From a virus, in the IMG/VR virus record IMGVR_UViG_3300032285_003046, positions 1-27,742 of that record: a stretch of 27,742 nt of DNA. One strand, 5' to 3'. A model generated the notes under the pieces. That model had not been told where the DNA came from. It saw only the letters and a program-made list of their open reading frames with translations, and searched no databases. Shown one piece after another: positions 9,297-26,877 of this stretch. The translations under genes were made by a program, and so were the position numbers. The first letter of the stretch is position 1, and each line of letters begins with the position of its first letter.

Positions 9297-10586
9297 TTAG
9301 ATTGCAGTGATTTCAAAACCAACGCATTTGATTCGCACTGAATTTTCCAAACTGGTGGGTTTGGCCGTAATAGTAATTCTGTTGTTGTGCCAATTGGCAT
9401 TGAAAGAACTGAGTGCTTCCACACTGCTGAATACAACACCATAAACAGTAAAATCCACAGTGTTTAATCTAAAATTGCGAACAGCAATAATTTCGCATGC
9501 CTGAGCGTCCTCAACATCTGTGACACTGGTTTCATAACCCTGTGAGTAAGCCATAACTCTCACACTTACTATGCTGGAACTGGTGGCAACAAACACAGGA
9601 GTATCCTGTTCCGGCAAACACAATACACTGTCACCCAGAACCATTGCACTAGCTCCGGTAGCACCAGTTTCACCTGTGGAACCTGTTGCACCTGTGTTGC
9701 TGGCTTCACCACCTGGGCCAGTGGGGCCTGAAACACCTGCAGGGCCTTGAACTCCTGTGGCACCGGTAGCACCTGAGGCACCAGTGTTTGTTGCAAGTCC
9801 TGGCATACCCGTGGCGCCTGTGGCACCAGTGTTTGTGGCAAGTCCTGCCACACCCGTGGCACCTGTGGCACCAGTGTTTGTTGCAAGTCCAGGAGCACCG
9901 GTGATTCCTGCTACACCACGGGCACCAGTGGCTCCGGTGGCTCCTGTAAGGGTGGCTGTGCCAGGCACTCCTCGGGGACCAGTGGCTCCTGTAAGGGCAG
10001 CAGTTCCTGGTACACCTGTGGCACCTGTGCTGCCTCGGGTGCCAGCTACACCAGCGGCTCCTGCTGCACCAGTGGATCCAGCAACACCAGCAGCACCAGT
10101 GCTGCCTGTGGATCCTCTGCTTCCAGTTGCGCCTGTGGGTCCAGGCACTGTGCTAGCAGCCCCATCAGCGCCAGTTTCACCCATAGGACCCTGTTCACCC
10201 TGAGCGCCAGTTTCCCCAGCAGGACCTGTGATGCCAGCGTCCCCTTTTACACCTGTTGCTCCAGTTGCCCCTGTGAGTGTGGCCAAACCAGGAACACCTT
10301 GAGGACCTGTTGCACCGGTGTTGGCTGCTGACCCTGGGGCGCCAGCGGCACCAGTTGCACCCATTTCACCACTTGGTCCTGTTGCTCCAGTATTACCCTT
10401 CAGGCCAGTGGCTCCTGTGGCACCAGTTTGTCCCAGTGGGCCTGTGGCTCCAGGAACGTCACTTACACCAGCCTCACCGCGGGCACCAGTGCTGCCTGTG
10501 GGTCCTGTTCTGTAAACAAATCCTGGTTCACCAGTATTGCCTGTGGGGCCTGTGTATCCGGTGGGTCCGGTTGTTCCTGTGGTCAT
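9297..10586 (-). CDS. Collagen-like fibre protein
   Basis: The 429-residue product has Gly-X-Y triplets from the N-terminus to about residue 315, mostly of the G-A-T / G-P-T type, with regular interruptions such as GLATNTG. This should form a Thr-rich collagen-type triple helix. The last ~110 residues are a compact non-repetitive domain (from [13 protein letters not shown] to [11 protein letters not shown]) that may trimerise the fibre or cap its tip. Collagen-like proteins are known in fibres of many tailed phages. ATG at 10586 follows GAGGA. The upstream gene ends 13 bases before it and the large adhesin starts 14 bases after it. The repeat number is likely to vary between relatives. Confidence 0.88.
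9781..9890 (-). repeat. 45-bp tandem repeat inside the collagen-like gene
   Basis: The segment starting CCAGTGTTTG at 9781 recurs at 9826 and 9871, exactly 45 bases apart, encoding the 15-residue unit [13 protein letters not shown] plus two variable residues. Copies differ at few bases, indicating recent expansion or gene conversion. Confidence 0.8.
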
Positions 10587-11389: not shown

Positions 11390-13048
11390 TTAGAGTCTAA
11401 GGCGCCAAGTTCCAGGAAAGTAGCTGGTGGGTGGGAATGCATCCCAAATCTGCTCTTGGTATTTGAGCCATTTTTGACTATAATTATTTTTCACAAACTG
11501 GGGTGTTGTATTCCCAGCTGCCTCAAACACACGATTCCACTGAGTGCCATCATATTCGATGATGTCGTTCACTGTTGCATCCACACCACCCCAGGCTGCA
11601 CTCACAGGGGCCAGCTCATCCACTAACAAATAGCGATCAGCAGCTCGGGGAGGAGTCAAGCCATTTCCAGGATAGGTAGTTTGTGGATTGATCACAGCAG
11701 TGAGCGGATTCATGGTGGCCAGAGGCCAGGTGCCAGCCTGCACACTCCAAACAATCAAATTTTGGTTTGTGGGATGCATACTGATGAATCCCACTATGTC
11801 AGATGCACGGTCATCCAAATCCGTTCCATTGAGTAGTCGCAGTTCACTACCTTCGGGTAGGCTGTCAGGGTCACAAGCACTGGCAGGTTTATAGCCACTC
11901 AAACTACCATACAGCTCAAACAGTCTCCACCAGGCTAGTGTGCCGCCATTGTAGGTGGTGGGAACAAAACCCAAACTTTCCACAGGAGTGCCTGTGATGT
12001 TTCTCAGCGTTATGTCCCCGCCGTTCAAGTTGATCAGTTCCAGTTTGTTGCTGAGAGTCAGTCTCACATTCAAGTTCTTGCCCTGAAAGCTATTGCGCAT
12101 AACACTGATCAGGTCATCCACACTGTTGTTGGGAATGGTTATGCTCACATCATTGACCAGGAAGCTCATGCCAGGTTGCATGATGGGACTGCTGCGGCCC
12201 ACAATTTGTGTGGGCAACCCTTGTTCGTCCACAATGGTGCCTCCATAGTTTTGCAGGCTGATTTCATAAACTCCATCGTTCACCAAAGTCAAACCAATGC
12301 GAGCGTTTTCAGGTGTGGTTACAATGCGTGTGAGGAGCTCTCCCTGTGTCCATTCCATGCTTTTGGGATCATATTCACCAACATTGATGTTAGTGACCAC
12401 TTGCTCAATTAGCTTCTGATATTCAACCAGTGCAGGAGGATTGACCCAGATGGGTATCTTGTATTCCACAGTCATCACATCAATGGGGTTTTCTGTGCCC
12501 ACTGGAATTGTTCTGCTGCTCCAGGTTATATTGGTGGGCTCAATGGTGCTGAACAAAGTCCAGTCCAAGGGGTTCATGCTGGTTTGAATATCCATCATGC
12601 CATTGAACAACACTTGTACTTGCTCAAACAACTCTTCCTTTTGGCTCAGGTTGCTGGTCCAAAAGTCCACGTTTACAGTCATGTTGAACGGAACTGGCAT
12701 ATATCTTTTCACACTGTATCTGTTGCCAGGCGTGTTCAGATATTTGCCTTCATACTCACGTTCATTTACTGCTAGGGTGCTCACCAAACTGGGGCTTTGA
12801 CGACGCTCAGGAGCCAAACTCATGCTGGTTGTGTAAACGCTTATAAAGGGTGCGCTGGGCATCTTGTTTTCACTGCCAGCATTGATTATTGTTTCAGCCA
12901 GCCTACTGGTTTCTCCCCAGCGGCAAGGAACCCGGTGCAACCGCACAGAGCCATCAGCATTGTTACCAAATTTGACTTGAAAGTTGCTGAATGCCCTTAT
13001 AACTTGCACTCTGTAAGCACGCAACTGTGCTCCATAAAAAAATTCCAT
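11390..13048 (-). CDS. gp15-like tail sheath terminator, enlarged
   Basis: The 552-residue product resembles T4 gp15, which caps the sheath below the neck. Its start (FYGAQLRAYRVQVIRAFSNF) parallels gp15's FYNSSFRRYATLMGDLFSNI, as I recall it. Later come VPCRWGETSRL, a PSAPFISVYTTSMSL strand, and PVPFNMTVNVDFWTSN followed by FEQVQVLFNG, again in gp15 order, with VEYKIPIWVNPPALVE near residue 205. Residues from about 240 on form an extension absent in T4 gp15 (272 residues), and include GGTIVDEQGLPTQIVGRSSP and TLSNKLELINLNGGDITL. ATG 13048 follows AAGGAT by 11 bases. gp14 ends 14 bases upstream, so neck and terminator are made together. An alternative is another conserved marine T4-like structural protein of unknown name. 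Confidence 0.62.
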   Translation of the reverse strand: MEFFYGAQLRAYRVQVIRAFSNFQVKFGNNADGSVRLHRVPCRWGETSRLAETIINAGSENKMPSAPFISVYTTSMSLAPERRQSPSLVSTLAVNEREYEGKYLNTPGNRYSVKRYMPVPFNMTVNVDFWTSNLSQKEELFEQVQVLFNGMMDIQTSMNPLDWTLFSTIEPTNITWSSRTIPVGTENPIDVMTVEYKIPIWVNPPALVEYQKLIEQVVTNINVGEYDPKSMEWTQGELLTRIVTTPENARIGLTLVNDGVYEISLQNYGGTIVDEQGLPTQIVGRSSPIMQPGMSFLVNDVSITIPNNSVDDLISVMRNSFQGKNLNVRLTLSNKLELINLNGGDITLRNITGTPVESLGFVPTTYNGGTLAWWRLFELYGSLSGYKPASACDPDSLPEGSELRLLNGTDLDDRASDIVGFISMHPTNQNLIVWSVQAGTWPLATMNPLTAVINPQTTYPGNGLTPPRAADRYLLVDELAPVSAAWGGVDATVNDIIEYDGTQWNRVFEAAGNTTPQFVKNNYSQKWLKYQEQIWDAFPPTSYFPGTWRLRL

Positions 13049-21956: not shown

Positions 21957-21987
21957 TCGCACATAGACATACCTACACGAGGTTAAG

Positions 21988-24900
21988 ATGGCGAATTTAG
22001 TGAGCCCTGGGGTTCAAGTACAAATAATAGATGAAAGCTTTTACGGGAGCAGCGGTCCAGGAACCGTACCATTTATTGTGTTTGCTACCAAGCAAGACAA
22101 GAATCAACCTGGAAGTACCACAAGCATTGCTGACGGAACCCGTGCAGTAAACGCAAACAAGTTGTATCTGATGACAAGCCAGAGAGAGCTGTTGCAAACT
22201 TTTGGTAACCCCATCTTTTATACCCAGGCTGGCACACCACAGCAGGGTAATGAACTCAACGAGTATGGGCTTTATTCAGCCTATCAATACCTGGGTATTG
22301 CCAATCAAGCATGGGTGATTCGTGCTGATGTGGACCTTAGTCAGCTGGAGCCCAGCAGCGTGGAACCCACAGGTGAACCCACCAATGGTGATTTGTGGTT
22401 GGACCTGAGCAATACCAGCTGGGGACTGTTCCGCAGCAATGGTAATGTGAACAGCAGCTTGGCTTGGGCAGCAGTAGCACCCACCGTAATCAGCAGTGCT
22501 GGTCAGATGGAGCGTTTTATTCAGGGGTATCGTGTAAGTCCTCGTAGTCCTCTTATTGATCCAAACAGTGCTTGTATCAGCCCTGCTGGTGCAGGTACGC
22601 TTGTAATCAACAATGTTCCCGTTGCACTAGCTAGCGGAAAGAGCCTGAACCAAATTGTTCAAACCATCAACACCAATACTGCTTTGCAGAGCAAGGGCAT
22701 CCGTGCTGAAATTTTTGCAAGAGTGGAAAAGGTCAACAGCACCAGCTATGCCACAGTTTATAACCTTCGCATCAAGATAGCTGATCCAACTCTACCGCTG
22801 AGCTTGGATGGCACAGTTGGTGGATATGCTATTAATTTGCTGGAAGATCTGGGCTTTACAGATAACGGCATGGCCACTTCCTTCCCCACCAACAACATGC
22901 AGCCTATCAGCAGCATTGGCACATTGGGAACTCTTGCTGTGAATGCAGTAGCCCAATTGGATGTTATGGGTACGTCAACAGCACTCATGACTGGAGTGCA
23001 GGTTTTTGAAAAGCTGGCTGTGACAACTGAAATTGGAACTGAACTCAAGTGGTTCACTGTGGGTAGCACAGATGCAATTTGTCCTGGGTTTGGCTGGAGA
23101 GAAGCAAGTGCAACAGTTGTAACTGGTGTAAACAGCGCCCCCAGCTTTAACCCTGGAGATGAGGCACAAGTTTATATTGGCACTACTTTGGTGTCCTTTG
23201 TGAACAGCAGCAGCACACTGAGTGGTTTTGCCAATGACTTGAATACTGCGTTTGACTTGGCCAATGTGAATGCATTGGCCAGTGTTTACAGTAATGGACC
23301 CAACAGCTATCTGCGTATCACCAACTATGATGGCACAAACATAGCACTCATTGACAGCATTGGCAGCCCATTTGAAAACTTGGGATTCACAATCAGCCAA
23401 AACTTCTATGGTGAAGTAGTTGGAGCAGACGCCAATCCTACCTTCTACGGAGATACTTTTTATATCACAGTGGGCGGCATTGCCAGCGAAGCCATCAGCC
23501 CAACTGGTAATGTGAATGCTGCTGTAACAGCAATCAATAATGATCCCAACCTGGGCCTGACCGGAATTATCACAGCCAGTGTGATGATGGTGGGCACAGA
23601 CGCTTACCTCAAGATCACCAACAACAACGGCACCTTCTTCTCAATGAGAAACGGCACAGGCTACAGCTATGGTGTTGCTCCGCTCATGTTGGCTGGTATT
23701 CCCACTGGCACCACTTTTGGTAACAGCCTAGTTTATCAGGGCTACAGTGTGAGCACTCCTCAACCACGCACATTGGACCAATTGTCCAGTGGAAACATTT
23801 GGATCAACACTGTGGCCAGCAACCGCGGCGCAGCCTGGAGTATCAAACGTTACAACACCGGCCTTAACCTATGGCAGAACAAGGCTGCGCCATTCTACAT
23901 GGATGATGACAGCGCCAATTCCGGATACGGTGCAAACCGTATTGTGGGCAGTGTTTATGTTCAATATAACAGTGAAATAACTGACCCCAGCAGTGCCTAT
24001 ATGCTTGCCAAGATTTGGAACGGCACCACCTGGCAGCCCATCAACACCAGCAACATGTACACTCAAAGCACCAGCACTCCAACTGGTAGCCCTGCTGATG
24101 GAAGACTGTGGTACAGCACAAACTTGCGTGTTGATATGATGGTGAGCGATGGCGTGCAGTGGATGGGGTACCGCAACATGTATCCTTCAACTGATCCCAA
24201 TGGTGTGATCCTTAGCGCCAGCGAGCCCAGCTACCAGAGTGATGGTGCCACCCCACTTGCTGACAATGATTTGTGGATTGACACCAGTGATACTGAAAAC
24301 TATCCCAAGCTATATCGTTATGATTCACTCAACAGCTACTGGCAATTGGTGGATGTGACTGATCAGAGCAGCAGCCAAGGAATCCTGTTTGCAGATGTTC
24401 GTCCCAATGACGATGGTTTGAGCACAGGCAGTGAACTGATTCAGGACATGCTTGTGAGCAACTATGTGGATCCAGATGCTCCCAGCGCGCTTACTCATCC
24501 ATATGGATTTTTGGTGTTCAACACACGTTATAGCACCAACAATGTCAAAGAATGGCGTCCCAACTATCTCACAACAGGTTCTTACCGCGATCGTTGGGTA
24601 AGTGCCAGCGGCAATGCACTCAATGGTGGTCCATTGATGGGACGCAAGGCTCAGCGTATTATGGTTGTTCGTGCCTTGGCAAGTGCCATTGTCAGCAACC
24701 AGGATATTCGCAGCGAAAGCAACTTCTTCAACTTGATTGCCACACCTGGCTATCCTGAACTGATCGACGAAATGCTAAACCTGAACACAGACAAGAAGGA
24801 TGTGGCATTTGTGTTGGTGGATCCACCAGCCCGCTTGACTCCAGATGGAACAAGCATTCAGATATGGTCCAACAACAGCAACAATGCACCCAGCAATGGG

Positions 24901-25575
24901 GAAGAAGGATTGATCACCCACAGCCGCTATGCTGGTGTTTACTATCCTTGGGGCTTGGCCACCAACCTGGATGGCACTGAAATATTTGTTCCACCCAGCA
25001 TGACAGTGCTGCGCACCATTGCATTCAATGACCAAGTGGCTTACCCTTGGTTTGCACCAGCCGGCTTCAACCGCGGTATGGTAAGTGCAGTAACAAGTGT
25101 GGGTTACCTGAACATGGAAAACGAATATGTGCCAGTTCAGTTGAGCCAAGGCCAGAGAGATGTGCTCTATAGCAACAAGATGAACCCCATTGCGTTCATT
25201 GCAGGACGTGGATTGGTTGTTTATGGTCAGCGCACACTAAGCCCCGTGGACAGCGCACTCAACCGCGTCAACGTTTCCCGTTTGGTGAACTACCTCAACT
25301 ATCAGCTGGACAACTTGGCCAAGCCATTCTTGTTTGAGCCCAATGATCAGTTCACACGTGACAGTGTTACCCGCACATTCGAGAGCTTCTTTGGGGACAT
25401 GGTTGCACTTAGAGCAGTGTATGACTATGCAGTGCTGTGTGATGACACCAACAACACACCTGTAAGAATCGATCGTAATGAACTGTGGATTGATGTGGCC
25501 ATCAAGCCAGTAAAGGCAGTGGAATTCATCTATATCCCACTCCGTATCCTCAACACAGGAGACCCACTGCCCTAA
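21988..25575 (+). CDS. 18: Tail sheath protein gp18, greatly enlarged
   Basis: The 1195-residue product has the sheath N-terminus (SPGVQVQIIDESFYGSSGPG) and C-terminus (AYPWFAPAGFNRGMV, NPIAFIAGRGLVVYGQRTL, ALNRVNVSRLVNYL) of T4 gp18, which forms the contractile sheath. T4 gp18 has 659 residues. The extra length lies between about 130 and 790. Residues ~204-290, ~393-467 and ~489-565 look like three related domains (INN or ITVGG start, then V..IN, then a Leu-Gly-Phe-type end) resembling the flagellin/hook IN repeat. At ~134, ~602, ~705 and ~760 a short G.LW...W module recurs. These probably project from the sheath surface. The conserved ends argue against a split or a frameshift. A strong terminator follows. 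Confidence 0.93.
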   Translation: MANLVSPGVQVQIIDESFYGSSGPGTVPFIVFATKQDKNQPGSTTSIADGTRAVNANKLYLMTSQRELLQTFGNPIFYTQAGTPQQGNELNEYGLYSAYQYLGIANQAWVIRADVDLSQLEPSSVEPTGEPTNGDLWLDLSNTSWGLFRSNGNVNSSLAWAAVAPTVISSAGQMERFIQGYRVSPRSPLIDPNSACISPAGAGTLVINNVPVALASGKSLNQIVQTINTNTALQSKGIRAEIFARVEKVNSTSYATVYNLRIKIADPTLPLSLDGTVGGYAINLLEDLGFTDNGMATSFPTNNMQPISSIGTLGTLAVNAVAQLDVMGTSTALMTGVQVFEKLAVTTEIGTELKWFTVGSTDAICPGFGWREASATVVTGVNSAPSFNPGDEAQVYIGTTLVSFVNSSSTLSGFANDLNTAFDLANVNALASVYSNGPNSYLRITNYDGTNIALIDSIGSPFENLGFTISQNFYGEVVGADANPTFYGDTFYITVGGIASEAISPTGNVNAAVTAINNDPNLGLTGIITASVMMVGTDAYLKITNNNGTFFSMRNGTGYSYGVAPLMLAGIPTGTTFGNSLVYQGYSVSTPQPRTLDQLSSGNIWINTVASNRGAAWSIKRYNTGLNLWQNKAAPFYMDDDSANSGYGANRIVGSVYVQYNSEITDPSSAYMLAKIWNGTTWQPINTSNMYTQSTSTPTGSPADGRLWYSTNLRVDMMVSDGVQWMGYRNMYPSTDPNGVILSASEPSYQSDGATPLADNDLWIDTSDTENYPKLYRYDSLNSYWQLVDVTDQSSSQGILFADVRPNDDGLSTGSELIQDMLVSNYVDPDAPSALTHPYGFLVFNTRYSTNNVKEWRPNYLTTGSYRDRWVSASGNALNGGPLMGRKAQRIMVVRALASAIVSNQDIRSESNFFNLIATPGYPELIDEMLNLNTDKKDVAFVLVDPPARLTPDGTSIQIWSNNSNNAPSNGEEGLITHSRYAGVYYPWGLATNLDGTEIFVPPSMTVLRTIAFNDQVAYPWFAPAGFNRGMVSAVTSVGYLNMENEYVPVQLSQGQRDVLYSNKMNPIAFIAGRGLVVYGQRTLSPVDSALNRVNVSRLVNYLNYQLDNLAKPFLFEPNDQFTRDSVTRTFESFFGDMVALRAVYDYAVLCDDTNNTPVRIDRNELWIDVAIKPVKAVEFIYIPLRILNTGDPLP

Positions 25576-25597: not shown

Positions 25598-25630
25598 AAA
25601 AAGCGGGGCAAGCAATTGCTCCGCTTTTTT
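25598..25630 (+). terminator. Intrinsic terminator after gp18
   Basis: AAAAAGCGGGGCAA and TTGCTCCGCTTTTT form a 14-bp stem (one G-T pair) with loop GCAA and a terminal T-run. The A-rich upstream arm makes it likely to work in both directions. Confidence 0.92.
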
Positions 25631-25631
25631 C

Positions 25632-25659: not shown

Positions 25660-25666
25660 CTAAATA
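25660..25666 (+). promoter_or_regulatory. Late promoter CTAAATA
   Basis: CTAAATA lies 32 bases upstream of the GTG at 25699, with AAAGGA as ribosome site. Confidence 0.6.
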
Positions 25667-25698: not shown

Positions 25699-26043
25699 GT
25701 GGACGAAGACGAAGACAACATAGATCTAGAGTTCAAGAGTGACCTTACTCCGGATCAAGGGGATAGCCCCAATTATTTCACAGCCAGAGCATATGCCAGC
25801 GGAGAGATTACCCGTTATTCAGTGGCAATGTTGGAATTTTACAGCGATAAGATGCCACGTAATGAAGCACTGGGACTGTTGATTGAAAGCCTGAGCGTGA
25901 GCCTGGGTAATCTGATCAGTTTGGTCAAGGAGGACCATCAAGAGGAAACAATAGAAAGTGCCAACCAGGTGATTCAGATTGGACTGCTTGCCCAATCTGA
26001 ACTGATTGCAACCATGGCATATGGCCAAGTAGGGCACGCTTAA
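25699..26043 (+). CDS. Small acidic protein of unknown function
   Basis: The 114-residue product has an acidic N-terminus (DEDEDNIDLEFKSDL) and two long helices (NEALGLLIESLSVSLGNLIS and IESANQVIQIGLLAQSEL). No family is recognised. It starts with GTG 8 bases after AAAGGA. It is expressed as a single gene between the gp18 terminator and the minus-strand FkbM gene: its stop TAA shares the TTAA with that gene's stop on the other strand. A chaperone or assembly helper for the sheath or tube is conceivable from position only. Confidence 0.6.
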   Translation: MDEDEDNIDLEFKSDLTPDQGDSPNYFTARAYASGEITRYSVAMLEFYSDKMPRNEALGLLIESLSVSLGNLISLVKEDHQEETIESANQVIQIGLLAQSELIATMAYGQVGHA

Positions 26044-26789
26044 CTAGCCAAAATTTCCTTGACCTTGGGGTTACCGGTCAACCAAGGGGGAAGGAACAGC
26101 CAGTGTCCTTCCACCGCATAACTCAAAGCATAACCGCGATCTGTGAAAAAGGGGATAACCTTGTCCGGATCGCTTTTCTGTCGTTCAGCCCAAACGATGG
26201 GCTGATAAGTATCAATGGTTTTTTGTGCTCCTTGCACAACTAGCCATTCCATGCCCTCCACATCCATTTTGATCAGCACAGGCGTGAGATTGAGACTGTC
26301 AATTGTGGTGGTGAGCACCTTGTCCACCTGATCTGTGTAGAGCAAAACACAATCACTGTTCTGAAACGGTGGTTGCACTTCAAAGGCACCAAAGTTTCCC
26401 TGAATCGTATAATCTGGCTGGCGAATTTCAATCTCACCGGGCTGGTCAGCCAGTCCCATCCAGTTGGGTCTTGCATTGAGCACATGATTTAGTGCCAGGT
26501 TTCCACAGCTTACCCAGAACAAAAATCTCTGCACTTCAAACATGTGGAATGTGAGGTCCTTGTGAACAAGGGCCAATGGTATGGTCCAACTGCCCATGTT
26601 GCTGCCTCCGTCCACCACATCTGTTTGAAAAGGTCGCAACTGCTTGGCCAGATCCAGCAGCCGACGAAACTTCCTGAGCTCAAACCCAATCAGATCCACG
26701 TGCTCAATGCCGTGACGTATCCATTGGTCTCCAGCCACTGCTAGGAATCGTCCATTATGATTTTCAACAAATTTTACAGGATGGTGCAT
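26040..26789 (-). CDS. FkbM-family SAM methyltransferase
   Basis: The 249-residue product has the SAM-binding strand and loop VVDGGSNMGSW (58-68), FHMFEVQ (81-87) and the FkbM signature IKMDVEGMEW (173-182), as in O-methyltransferases of this family that act on sugars or small molecules. In phages and hosts such enzymes often modify surface polysaccharides; its substrate here is unknown. I chose ATG 26789 behind AAGGA (6-base spacing) over GTG 26825. It is a lone minus-strand gene between late plus-strand genes, ends on a shared TTAA, and has no convincing promoter or late box in the 126 bases upstream, where gp19's late box lies. It was probably picked up separately. Confidence 0.85.
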   Translation of the reverse strand: MHHPVKFVENHNGRFLAVAGDQWIRHGIEHVDLIGFELRKFRRLLDLAKQLRPFQTDVVDGGSNMGSWTIPLALVHKDLTFHMFEVQRFLFWVSCGNLALNHVLNARPNWMGLADQPGEIEIRQPDYTIQGNFGAFEVQPPFQNSDCVLLYTDQVDKVLTTTIDSLNLTPVLIKMDVEGMEWLVVQGAQKTIDTYQPIVWAERQKSDPDKVIPFFTDRGYALSYAVEGHWLFLPPWLTGNPKVKEILAS

Positions 26790-26877
26790 GATAGTTCCTT
26801 GAATAGATAAGCTGATTGTGCTCACCTATTCAAAAAAGTGCAATATCTGAGTGCCCAGAAAGTTTTTGACCGCTGCC

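What the first reader, a model, noticed from the sequence alone, without database searches (positions are those of the whole stretch)
21988..25575. Tail sheath protein nearly twice the T4 length with flagellin-IN-like and tryptophan repeats
The ends are normal gp18, but about 500 extra residues sit in the middle. Three segments have the build of the flagellin/hook IN repeat, and a G.LW...W module appears four times. A sheath studded with such domains would have an unusual outer surface, perhaps for binding or for protection in open water.
Basis: partly seen in the sequence, partly recalled or inferred. Interest (0 to 1): 0.65.

Follow-up and report, generated by a model that had tools for sequence, protein, structure and literature searches.

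The report
Jumbo-phage tail sheath with flagellin-like inserts
A giant virus of bacteria builds its contracting tail from an oversized sheath protein whose middle carries three copies of a small domain shaped like parts of the bacterial flagellum cap; single copies of such domains are known in other phages, and here they are plugged in at several places and also into the protein that caps the sheath.

Summary
The ORF at 21988-25575 encodes a 1195-aa tail sheath whose ends fold like known sheaths. The middle holds three related beta-beta-alpha-beta-beta-beta modules (IN1-IN3) and four clear W modules plus one degenerate copy. Profile comparison puts both repeat families well above column-shuffled controls. 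The model of the IN region matches flagellar cap FliD and flagellin D2/D3 domains best (Z 9.8). The window protein itself stays under the Pfam Flagellin_IN cut-off; the related Phosso sheath passes it.

Across 40 full-length homologues the W scaffold is near-constant, while 0-3 IN modules sit in four slots and account for much of the length difference. The window's clade has three, and its gp15-like sheath terminator carries a further IN module, absent in 15 relatives outside the clade.

It is not unprecedented: the Atu_ph07 sheath (1086 aa) was already classed as five or more domains, FliD-like lateral sheath domains are published for XM1 and phiTE/Sf14/Adele, and a 1492-aa sheath exists.

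Best reading: the core contracts, and the IN modules are outward-facing accessory domains, probably for weak attachment or fibre docking. Function is inferred; the open-water idea was not testable. New variant of a known kind.

The parts
21988..25575 (+). Tail sheath protein, 1195 aa (gp18 family, PHROG 10581)
21980..21987 (+). Ribosome-binding-site-like AGGTTAAG directly before the ATG
   Evidence: read
21988..22341 (+). N-terminal part of the sheath core (residues 1-118)
   Evidence: VIA alignment of core to solved sheaths; conserved in alignment
22342..22488 (+). W module 1 (residues ~119-167)
   Evidence: domain E 1.2e-11; W1-W3 profile E 2.1e-6
22591..22863 (+). IN-like module 1, slot A (residues ~202-292)
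   Evidence: Flagellin_IN 12.8 bits, under the 22.7 cut-off
22885..23121 (+). Conserved linker domain M1 (residues ~300-378), present in most relatives
   Evidence: alignment; no significant link to IN or W modules
23155..23391 (+). IN-like module 2, slot B (residues ~390-468)
   Evidence: (pLDDT mostly above 90)
23452..23712 (+). IN-like module 3, slot B' (residues ~489-575)
   Evidence: (phiTE sheath domain, Z 7.6)
23749..23895 (+). W module 2 (residues ~588-636)
   Evidence: domain E 2.8e-9; W2-W4 E 1.9e-7
23929..24057 (+). Degenerate W-like module (residues ~648-690); other lineages insert an IN module here (slot C)
24067..24195 (+). W module 3 (residues ~694-736)
   Evidence: domain E 3.5e-12
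24217..24363 (+). W module 4 (residues ~744-792)
   Evidence: domain E 4.7e-14
24625..25560 (+). C-terminal part of the sheath core (residues ~880-1191), the T4 gp18-like contractile part
25599..25631 (+). Terminator-like hairpin with T run after the sheath gene
   Evidence: read; not scanned with a tool
11390..13048 (-). gp15-like tail sheath stabiliser/terminator, 552 aa
   Evidence: PF16724 44 bits against cut-off 25; PHROG 11196
11951..12187 (-). IN-like module inserted in the gp15-like protein (residues ~288-366)
   Evidence: E 2.7e-5 in a six-frame scan of window and loci; residues 276-385 match the L015 contig inside an open frame of sheath length at E 1.3e-7; absent from relatives outside the clade

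Best explanation
This is the contractile tail sheath of a jumbo phage of the wider Atu_ph07/Phosso/PA5oct/RaK2-like sheath family. The N- and C-terminal parts form the standard sheath core, which assembles around the tube and contracts. The middle is a lateral arm: a family-wide scaffold of tryptophan modules, with three modules of the FliD/flagellin (IN) fold plugged into its loops. The IN modules are accessory, outward-facing domains that do not drive contraction. Repeated around and along every ring of the sheath, they most likely give a dense array of weak attachment sites, for cell-surface material or for the bases of hair-like tail fibres, with a possible secondary role in stabilising neighbouring subunits. 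Shown here: sheath identity, modular repeats, IN-like fold, variable number and slots, and a further IN module in the sheath terminator of the same clade. Inferred: outward position, and function.
For: Sheath identity. Repeats beyond chance. Fold: FliD and flagellin chains at Z 9.8-8.1 against about 5 for the unrelated rows; FliD also first in plain Foldseek; Phosso sheath over the Flagellin_IN cut-off. Modularity: W1-W4 in nearly all of 40 full-length homologues, IN count 0-3 in slots A, B, B', C; minimum changes on a core tree: A 2, B 2, B' 1, C 4. IN modules are the most divergent segments within the clade (37-42% identity against 80% for the C-core) yet under purifying selection where dN/dS could be estimated (0.04-0.22), which fits a kept but peripheral domain. 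Terminator: IN module in 3 of 3 clade members with a gp15 in hand and 0 of 15 others. Literature: the lateral domain of phiTE/Sf14/Adele sheaths takes no direct part in contraction and resembles FliD and flagellin (PMC12846349); the XM1 sheath insertion domain resembles FliD D3 (PMC10457771); family members phAPEC6 and CBB carry hair-like fibres on the sheath.
Against: No assembled sheath was modelled, so the outward position of each module is not shown here. Plain Foldseek E-values for the FliD matches are weak (best 1.9e-3). No carbohydrate-binding site or partner was identified. In phAPEC6 the hairs sit in only three rings, not on every sheath ring, so a sheath domain present in every subunit cannot alone define where they attach. 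The gp15 module and clade-wide gain could equally reflect selection for stability.
Confidence: 0.55

Rival explanations
1. The IN modules are mainly structural: they touch neighbouring subunits or rings and stiffen or cement a very long-lived tail, with no binding role.
For: Evseev et al. propose cementing by additional domains and cite a neighbour contact in phage 812 (PMC9230969). The same module in the sheath terminator would fit an end-to-end contact surface. CBB particles with contracted tails were rarely found (PMC5259590).
Against: Family members with no IN module exist (L028, L065, L071, L079). IN modules are the least conserved parts within the clade, unlike the core contacts. No direct contraction role for the lateral domain of phiTE-type sheaths.
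Confidence: 0.25
2. The IN modules are near-neutral passengers: phage-borne domains that insert into tolerant surface loops, kept only because they do no harm.
For: Several changes of slot C on the core tree (4); high divergence; published view that extra sheath domains are not needed for contraction (PMC9230969).
Against: Purifying selection where measurable, dN/dS 0.04-0.22; module B' is shared by all six full-length members of the window's clade; large synthesis cost for one of the most abundant virion proteins.
Confidence: 0.12
3. The middle domains are Ig-like, as most additional sheath domains are described, not flagellin-like.
For: Evseev et al. describe most additional domains as Ig-like; antibody chains appear low in the fold list at Z about 3.
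Against: FliD and flagellin chains lead at Z up to 9.8, antibody chains about 3; beta-beta-alpha-beta-beta-beta order with a helix; Phosso sheath passes the Flagellin_IN cut-off.
Confidence: 0.05

Closest known systems
Tail sheath of Agrobacterium phage Atu_ph07 (1086 aa) and Sinorhizobium phage Phosso (1091 aa)
   Same: Full-length homologues, about 43% identical; same W scaffold; IN modules in slots A and B; Atu_ph07 already classed as a type 3 sheath with five or more domains (PMC9230969).
   Different: They lack IN3 (slot B') and the IN module in the gp15-like terminator.
Sheath insertion domain of Vibrio phage XM1; lateral domain of phiTE, Sf14 and Adele sheaths
   Same: One sheath domain described as similar to FliD or flagellin (PMC10457771, PMC12846349); phiTE and Sf14 chains match the third module at Z 7.6 and 6.3.
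   Different: One such domain per sheath is described there, in much smaller proteins; three copies here.
Flagellar cap FliD D2/D3 and flagellin D2/D3 (Flagellin_IN, PF07196)
   Same: Fold; Phosso sheath module over the Pfam cut-off.
   Different: The window protein is under the cut-off; flagellar proteins assemble a filament or cap, here the domain decorates a phage sheath.
RaK2-like sheaths (CBB 884 aa; phAPEC6 97 kDa) and PA5oct-like Paride (879 aa)
   Same: Homologous sheath, W modules, an IN-like stretch in slot C (Paride by profile, CBB by eye only).
   Different: Different slot, one module at most; hairs have been seen on CBB and phAPEC6 tails, nothing is known of the window's virion.

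Membership tests
Contractile phage tail sheath (T4 gp18 type) | Phage_sheath_1C (PF17482) over its curated cut-off | tested here: met
   53.9 bits against 26.9, residues 1088-1184
Contractile phage tail sheath (T4 gp18 type) | Phage_sheath_1 (PF04984) over its curated cut-off | tested here: inconclusive
   14.6 bits against 31.4; several clear homologues also fall under it, so the model is insensitive for this group
Contractile phage tail sheath (T4 gp18 type) | Sheath core fold formed by the N- and C-terminal parts | tested here: met
   Z 34.3, rmsd 4.5, 352 residues aligned to 9ev2
Contractile phage tail sheath (T4 gp18 type) | Forms a contractile tube around the tail tube | not testable with these tools
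   needs virions; tail tube gene lies close downstream (PHROG 4542)
Type 3 multi-domain sheath (Evseev 2022) | Three or more domains, extra ones in the middle of the chain | tested here: met
   core plus W and IN modules in the model
Flagellin_IN (PF07196) | Score over the curated cut-off in the window protein | tested here: not met
   12.8 and 12.5 bits against 22.7; a homologue, Phosso, meets it at 28.4
Flagellin_IN / FliD-flagellin D2-D3 fold | Fold of the module | tested here: met
   Z 9.8, rmsd 2.1, 95 residues (5h5v_C); flagellar chains fill the top of the list
Flagellar axial protein | Terminal coiled D0/D1 helices and export as a flagellar subunit | tested here: not met
   both termini belong to the sheath core, so no terminal D0/D1 helices; export was not testable; only the module fold is shared

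The most novel reading that the evidence does not exclude
The IN module is a portable tail-surface unit that this clade of jumbo phages has multiplied and placed both on the sheath and on its terminator, so that the whole tail outside carries one shared type of docking site for hair-like fibres, with module number and slot setting fibre density.
Probability: 0.12. Interest if true: 0.6.

Novelty: new variant of a known kind. Interest (0 to 1): 0.38.

Why it matters
Sheath proteins of large phages carry big middle domains of unclear use. Resolving them into a conserved W scaffold plus a countable plug-in of the FliD/flagellin fold gives a simple way to compare sheaths, and natural members with 0, 1, 2 and 3 modules make the role of these domains testable. 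The shared insertion in the sheath terminator of one clade points to selection on the tail surface as a whole.

Tried and rejected
Pfam scan of the three IN segments alone: only IN1 gave a sub-threshold Flagellin_IN hit, IN2 and IN3 none. PDB sequence search with an IN profile found nothing useful (best E 0.4), so the FliD link rests on fold and on the Phosso match. PHROG scan of the IN modules: one weak hit. Diversifying selection on the IN modules: not seen, dN/dS under 0.25 where estimable. Second sheath gene suggested by two-piece hits in L008/L010: rejected, only a 22-codon copy of the sheath end beyond an endonuclease-like ORF. IN4 against the degenerate W module gave a huge score only because the two alignments share columns and rows; ignored. 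IN1-IN3 was not reproducible as a direct match. Literature terms joining Flagellin_IN and phage sheath gave no paper; no bioRxiv preprints are held, and the phiTE structure paper was not read.

Full report
What was checked. The ORF 21988-25575 on the + strand encodes 1195 aa behind an AGGTTAAG ribosome-binding-like site. The reverse strand across it, read in the one frame tried, is broken by stops. It is a tail sheath: PF17482 over its cut-off at 1088-1184, PHROG 10581 end to end at E 2.9e-250, T4 gp18 at 997-1185, and the model's core on solved sheaths at Z 34.3. The best named relatives are Sinorhizobium phage Phosso and Agrobacterium phage Atu_ph07 (about 43% identity), then PA5oct-like, CBB and RaK2-like jumbo phages. 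Neighbours fit a myovirus structural cluster: prohead protease, major head protein, gp15-like sheath stabiliser, head-tail adaptor, dNMP kinase, tail tube.

The repeats are real. Profiles of each segment built from a 40-sequence alignment were compared by hhalign. IN2-IN3 gave E 2.6e-9 and IN1-IN2 1.9e-5; W1-W3 2.1e-6 and W2-W4 1.9e-7; comparisons across the two kinds gave nothing. In 60 column-shuffled controls per pair no control reached the observed score. IN1-IN3 by itself is marginal and that pair is tied through IN2. A merged W profile finds four modules at E 3e-9 to 5e-14, and a merged IN profile three, at 6e-10, 4e-20 and 4e-23; these profiles include the window sequence, so the shuffles are the better test.

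Structure. AlphaFold2 on the full protein gave mean pLDDT 78, and on residues 198-584 pLDDT 84 with IN2 and IN3 mostly above 90. Each IN module shows two strands, a helix, three strands and usually a short helix. The IN region model matches FliD from Pseudomonas, E. coli, Serratia and Salmonella and Vibrio flagellins at Z 9.8-9.0, with unrelated chains near 5; plain Foldseek also ranks FliD first, with weak E-values. Sheath chains of phiTE and Sf14 match the third module at Z 7.6 and 6.3. By sequence, the window scores only 12.5-12.8 bits for Flagellin_IN, under the 22.7 cut-off, but the Phosso sheath scores 28.4 and passes. So the fold claim is supported, and formal Pfam membership of the window protein is not met.

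Family-wide anatomy. Over 40 full-length homologues of 785-1347 aa, W1-W4 are present in nearly all (L097, the CBB sheath, shows three). IN modules number 0 to 3 in four slots: A, B, B' and C, the last inside the degenerate W module. The slot-C insert matches IN2 at E 1.4e-10. On a tree of the core alone the least number of changes is A 2, B 2, B' 1, C 4; the count cannot tell gain from loss. The window's clade (with L038, L003, L004, L006, L012) has A+B+B'. Within that clade the IN modules are the least conserved part (37-42% against 80% in the C-core) but under purifying selection where it could be estimated.

An addition not in the finding. The gp15-like sheath stabiliser at 11390-13048 (- strand) carries an IN module at about residues 288-366. 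The region 276-385 of that protein hits contig G005 (L015) at E 1.3e-7 inside an open frame of 969 aa, the length of the L015 sheath frame (frame length), an independent sign of kinship. The insert is present in the window, L003 and L012 (549-560 aa) and absent in 15 relatives outside the clade (447-485 aa).

Against the literature. Evseev et al. 2022 (PMC9230969) already list the Atu_ph07 sheath at 1086 aa with five or more domains and discuss stability or adhesion as roles. The XM1 paper reports a sheath insertion domain like FliD D3 (PMC10457771), and the Adele paper describes the phiTE/Sf14/Adele lateral domain as shared with FliD, flagellin and other virion proteins, with no direct part in contraction (PMC12846349). 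Longer sheaths exist, such as 1492 aa in S-CBWM1. What I did not find described is the multi-copy, multi-slot use of this module and its joint presence in sheath and terminator; that search was limited to an open-access library.

Mechanism. The core contracts; the IN modules are most likely outward accessory domains. Sheath family members CBB and phAPEC6 have hair-like fibres on the sheath, which makes docking or weak attachment plausible, but in phAPEC6 the hairs form only three rings, and no binding partner was found. I put 0.55 on the accessory attachment reading, 0.25 on cementing, 0.12 on passengers.

Limits. Records near the window's own genome may be left out of some searches; L001 carries a 100% identical sheath and may be the same virus. 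The W-module scaffold was not folded alone. Habitat is not told. Module calls in homologues depend on profiles built from the same family.

Noticed in passing
window 11951-12187 (-), within ORF 11390-13048: IN-like module inserted in the gp15-like sheath stabiliser, in the window's clade only
   Followed up: yes
L008 3294-5134 (also L010, L011): A 22-codon copy of the sheath gene's 3' end lies beyond an endonuclease-like ORF of 564 aa, as if an inserted element had duplicated the end of the sheath gene; Paride also has a homing endonuclease gene next to its sheath gene. L011 was inferred from its two-piece match only.
   Followed up: partly
window 9297-10586 (-): Collagen-like protein of 429 aa (about 300 residues of G-X-Y repeats, PF01391) close to the gp15-like gene; a possible fibre.
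   Followed up: no
window 21950, 25660 and about 26878: CTAAATAT before the sheath gene (21950) and at 25660, and TATAAATATC before the tail tube gene, resembling T4-type late promoters; YTAAATAT occurs 4 times against 0.8 expected.
   Followed up: partly
L089 (G009 contig, 298556-298720): Sub-threshold Flagellin_IN match (19.2 bits) in a 669-aa ORF that is not the sheath, in a 424 kb relative.
   Followed up: no
window 26040-26825 (-): Methyltransferase-like ORF (PHROG 8156) on the opposite strand between the sheath and tube genes.
   Followed up: no
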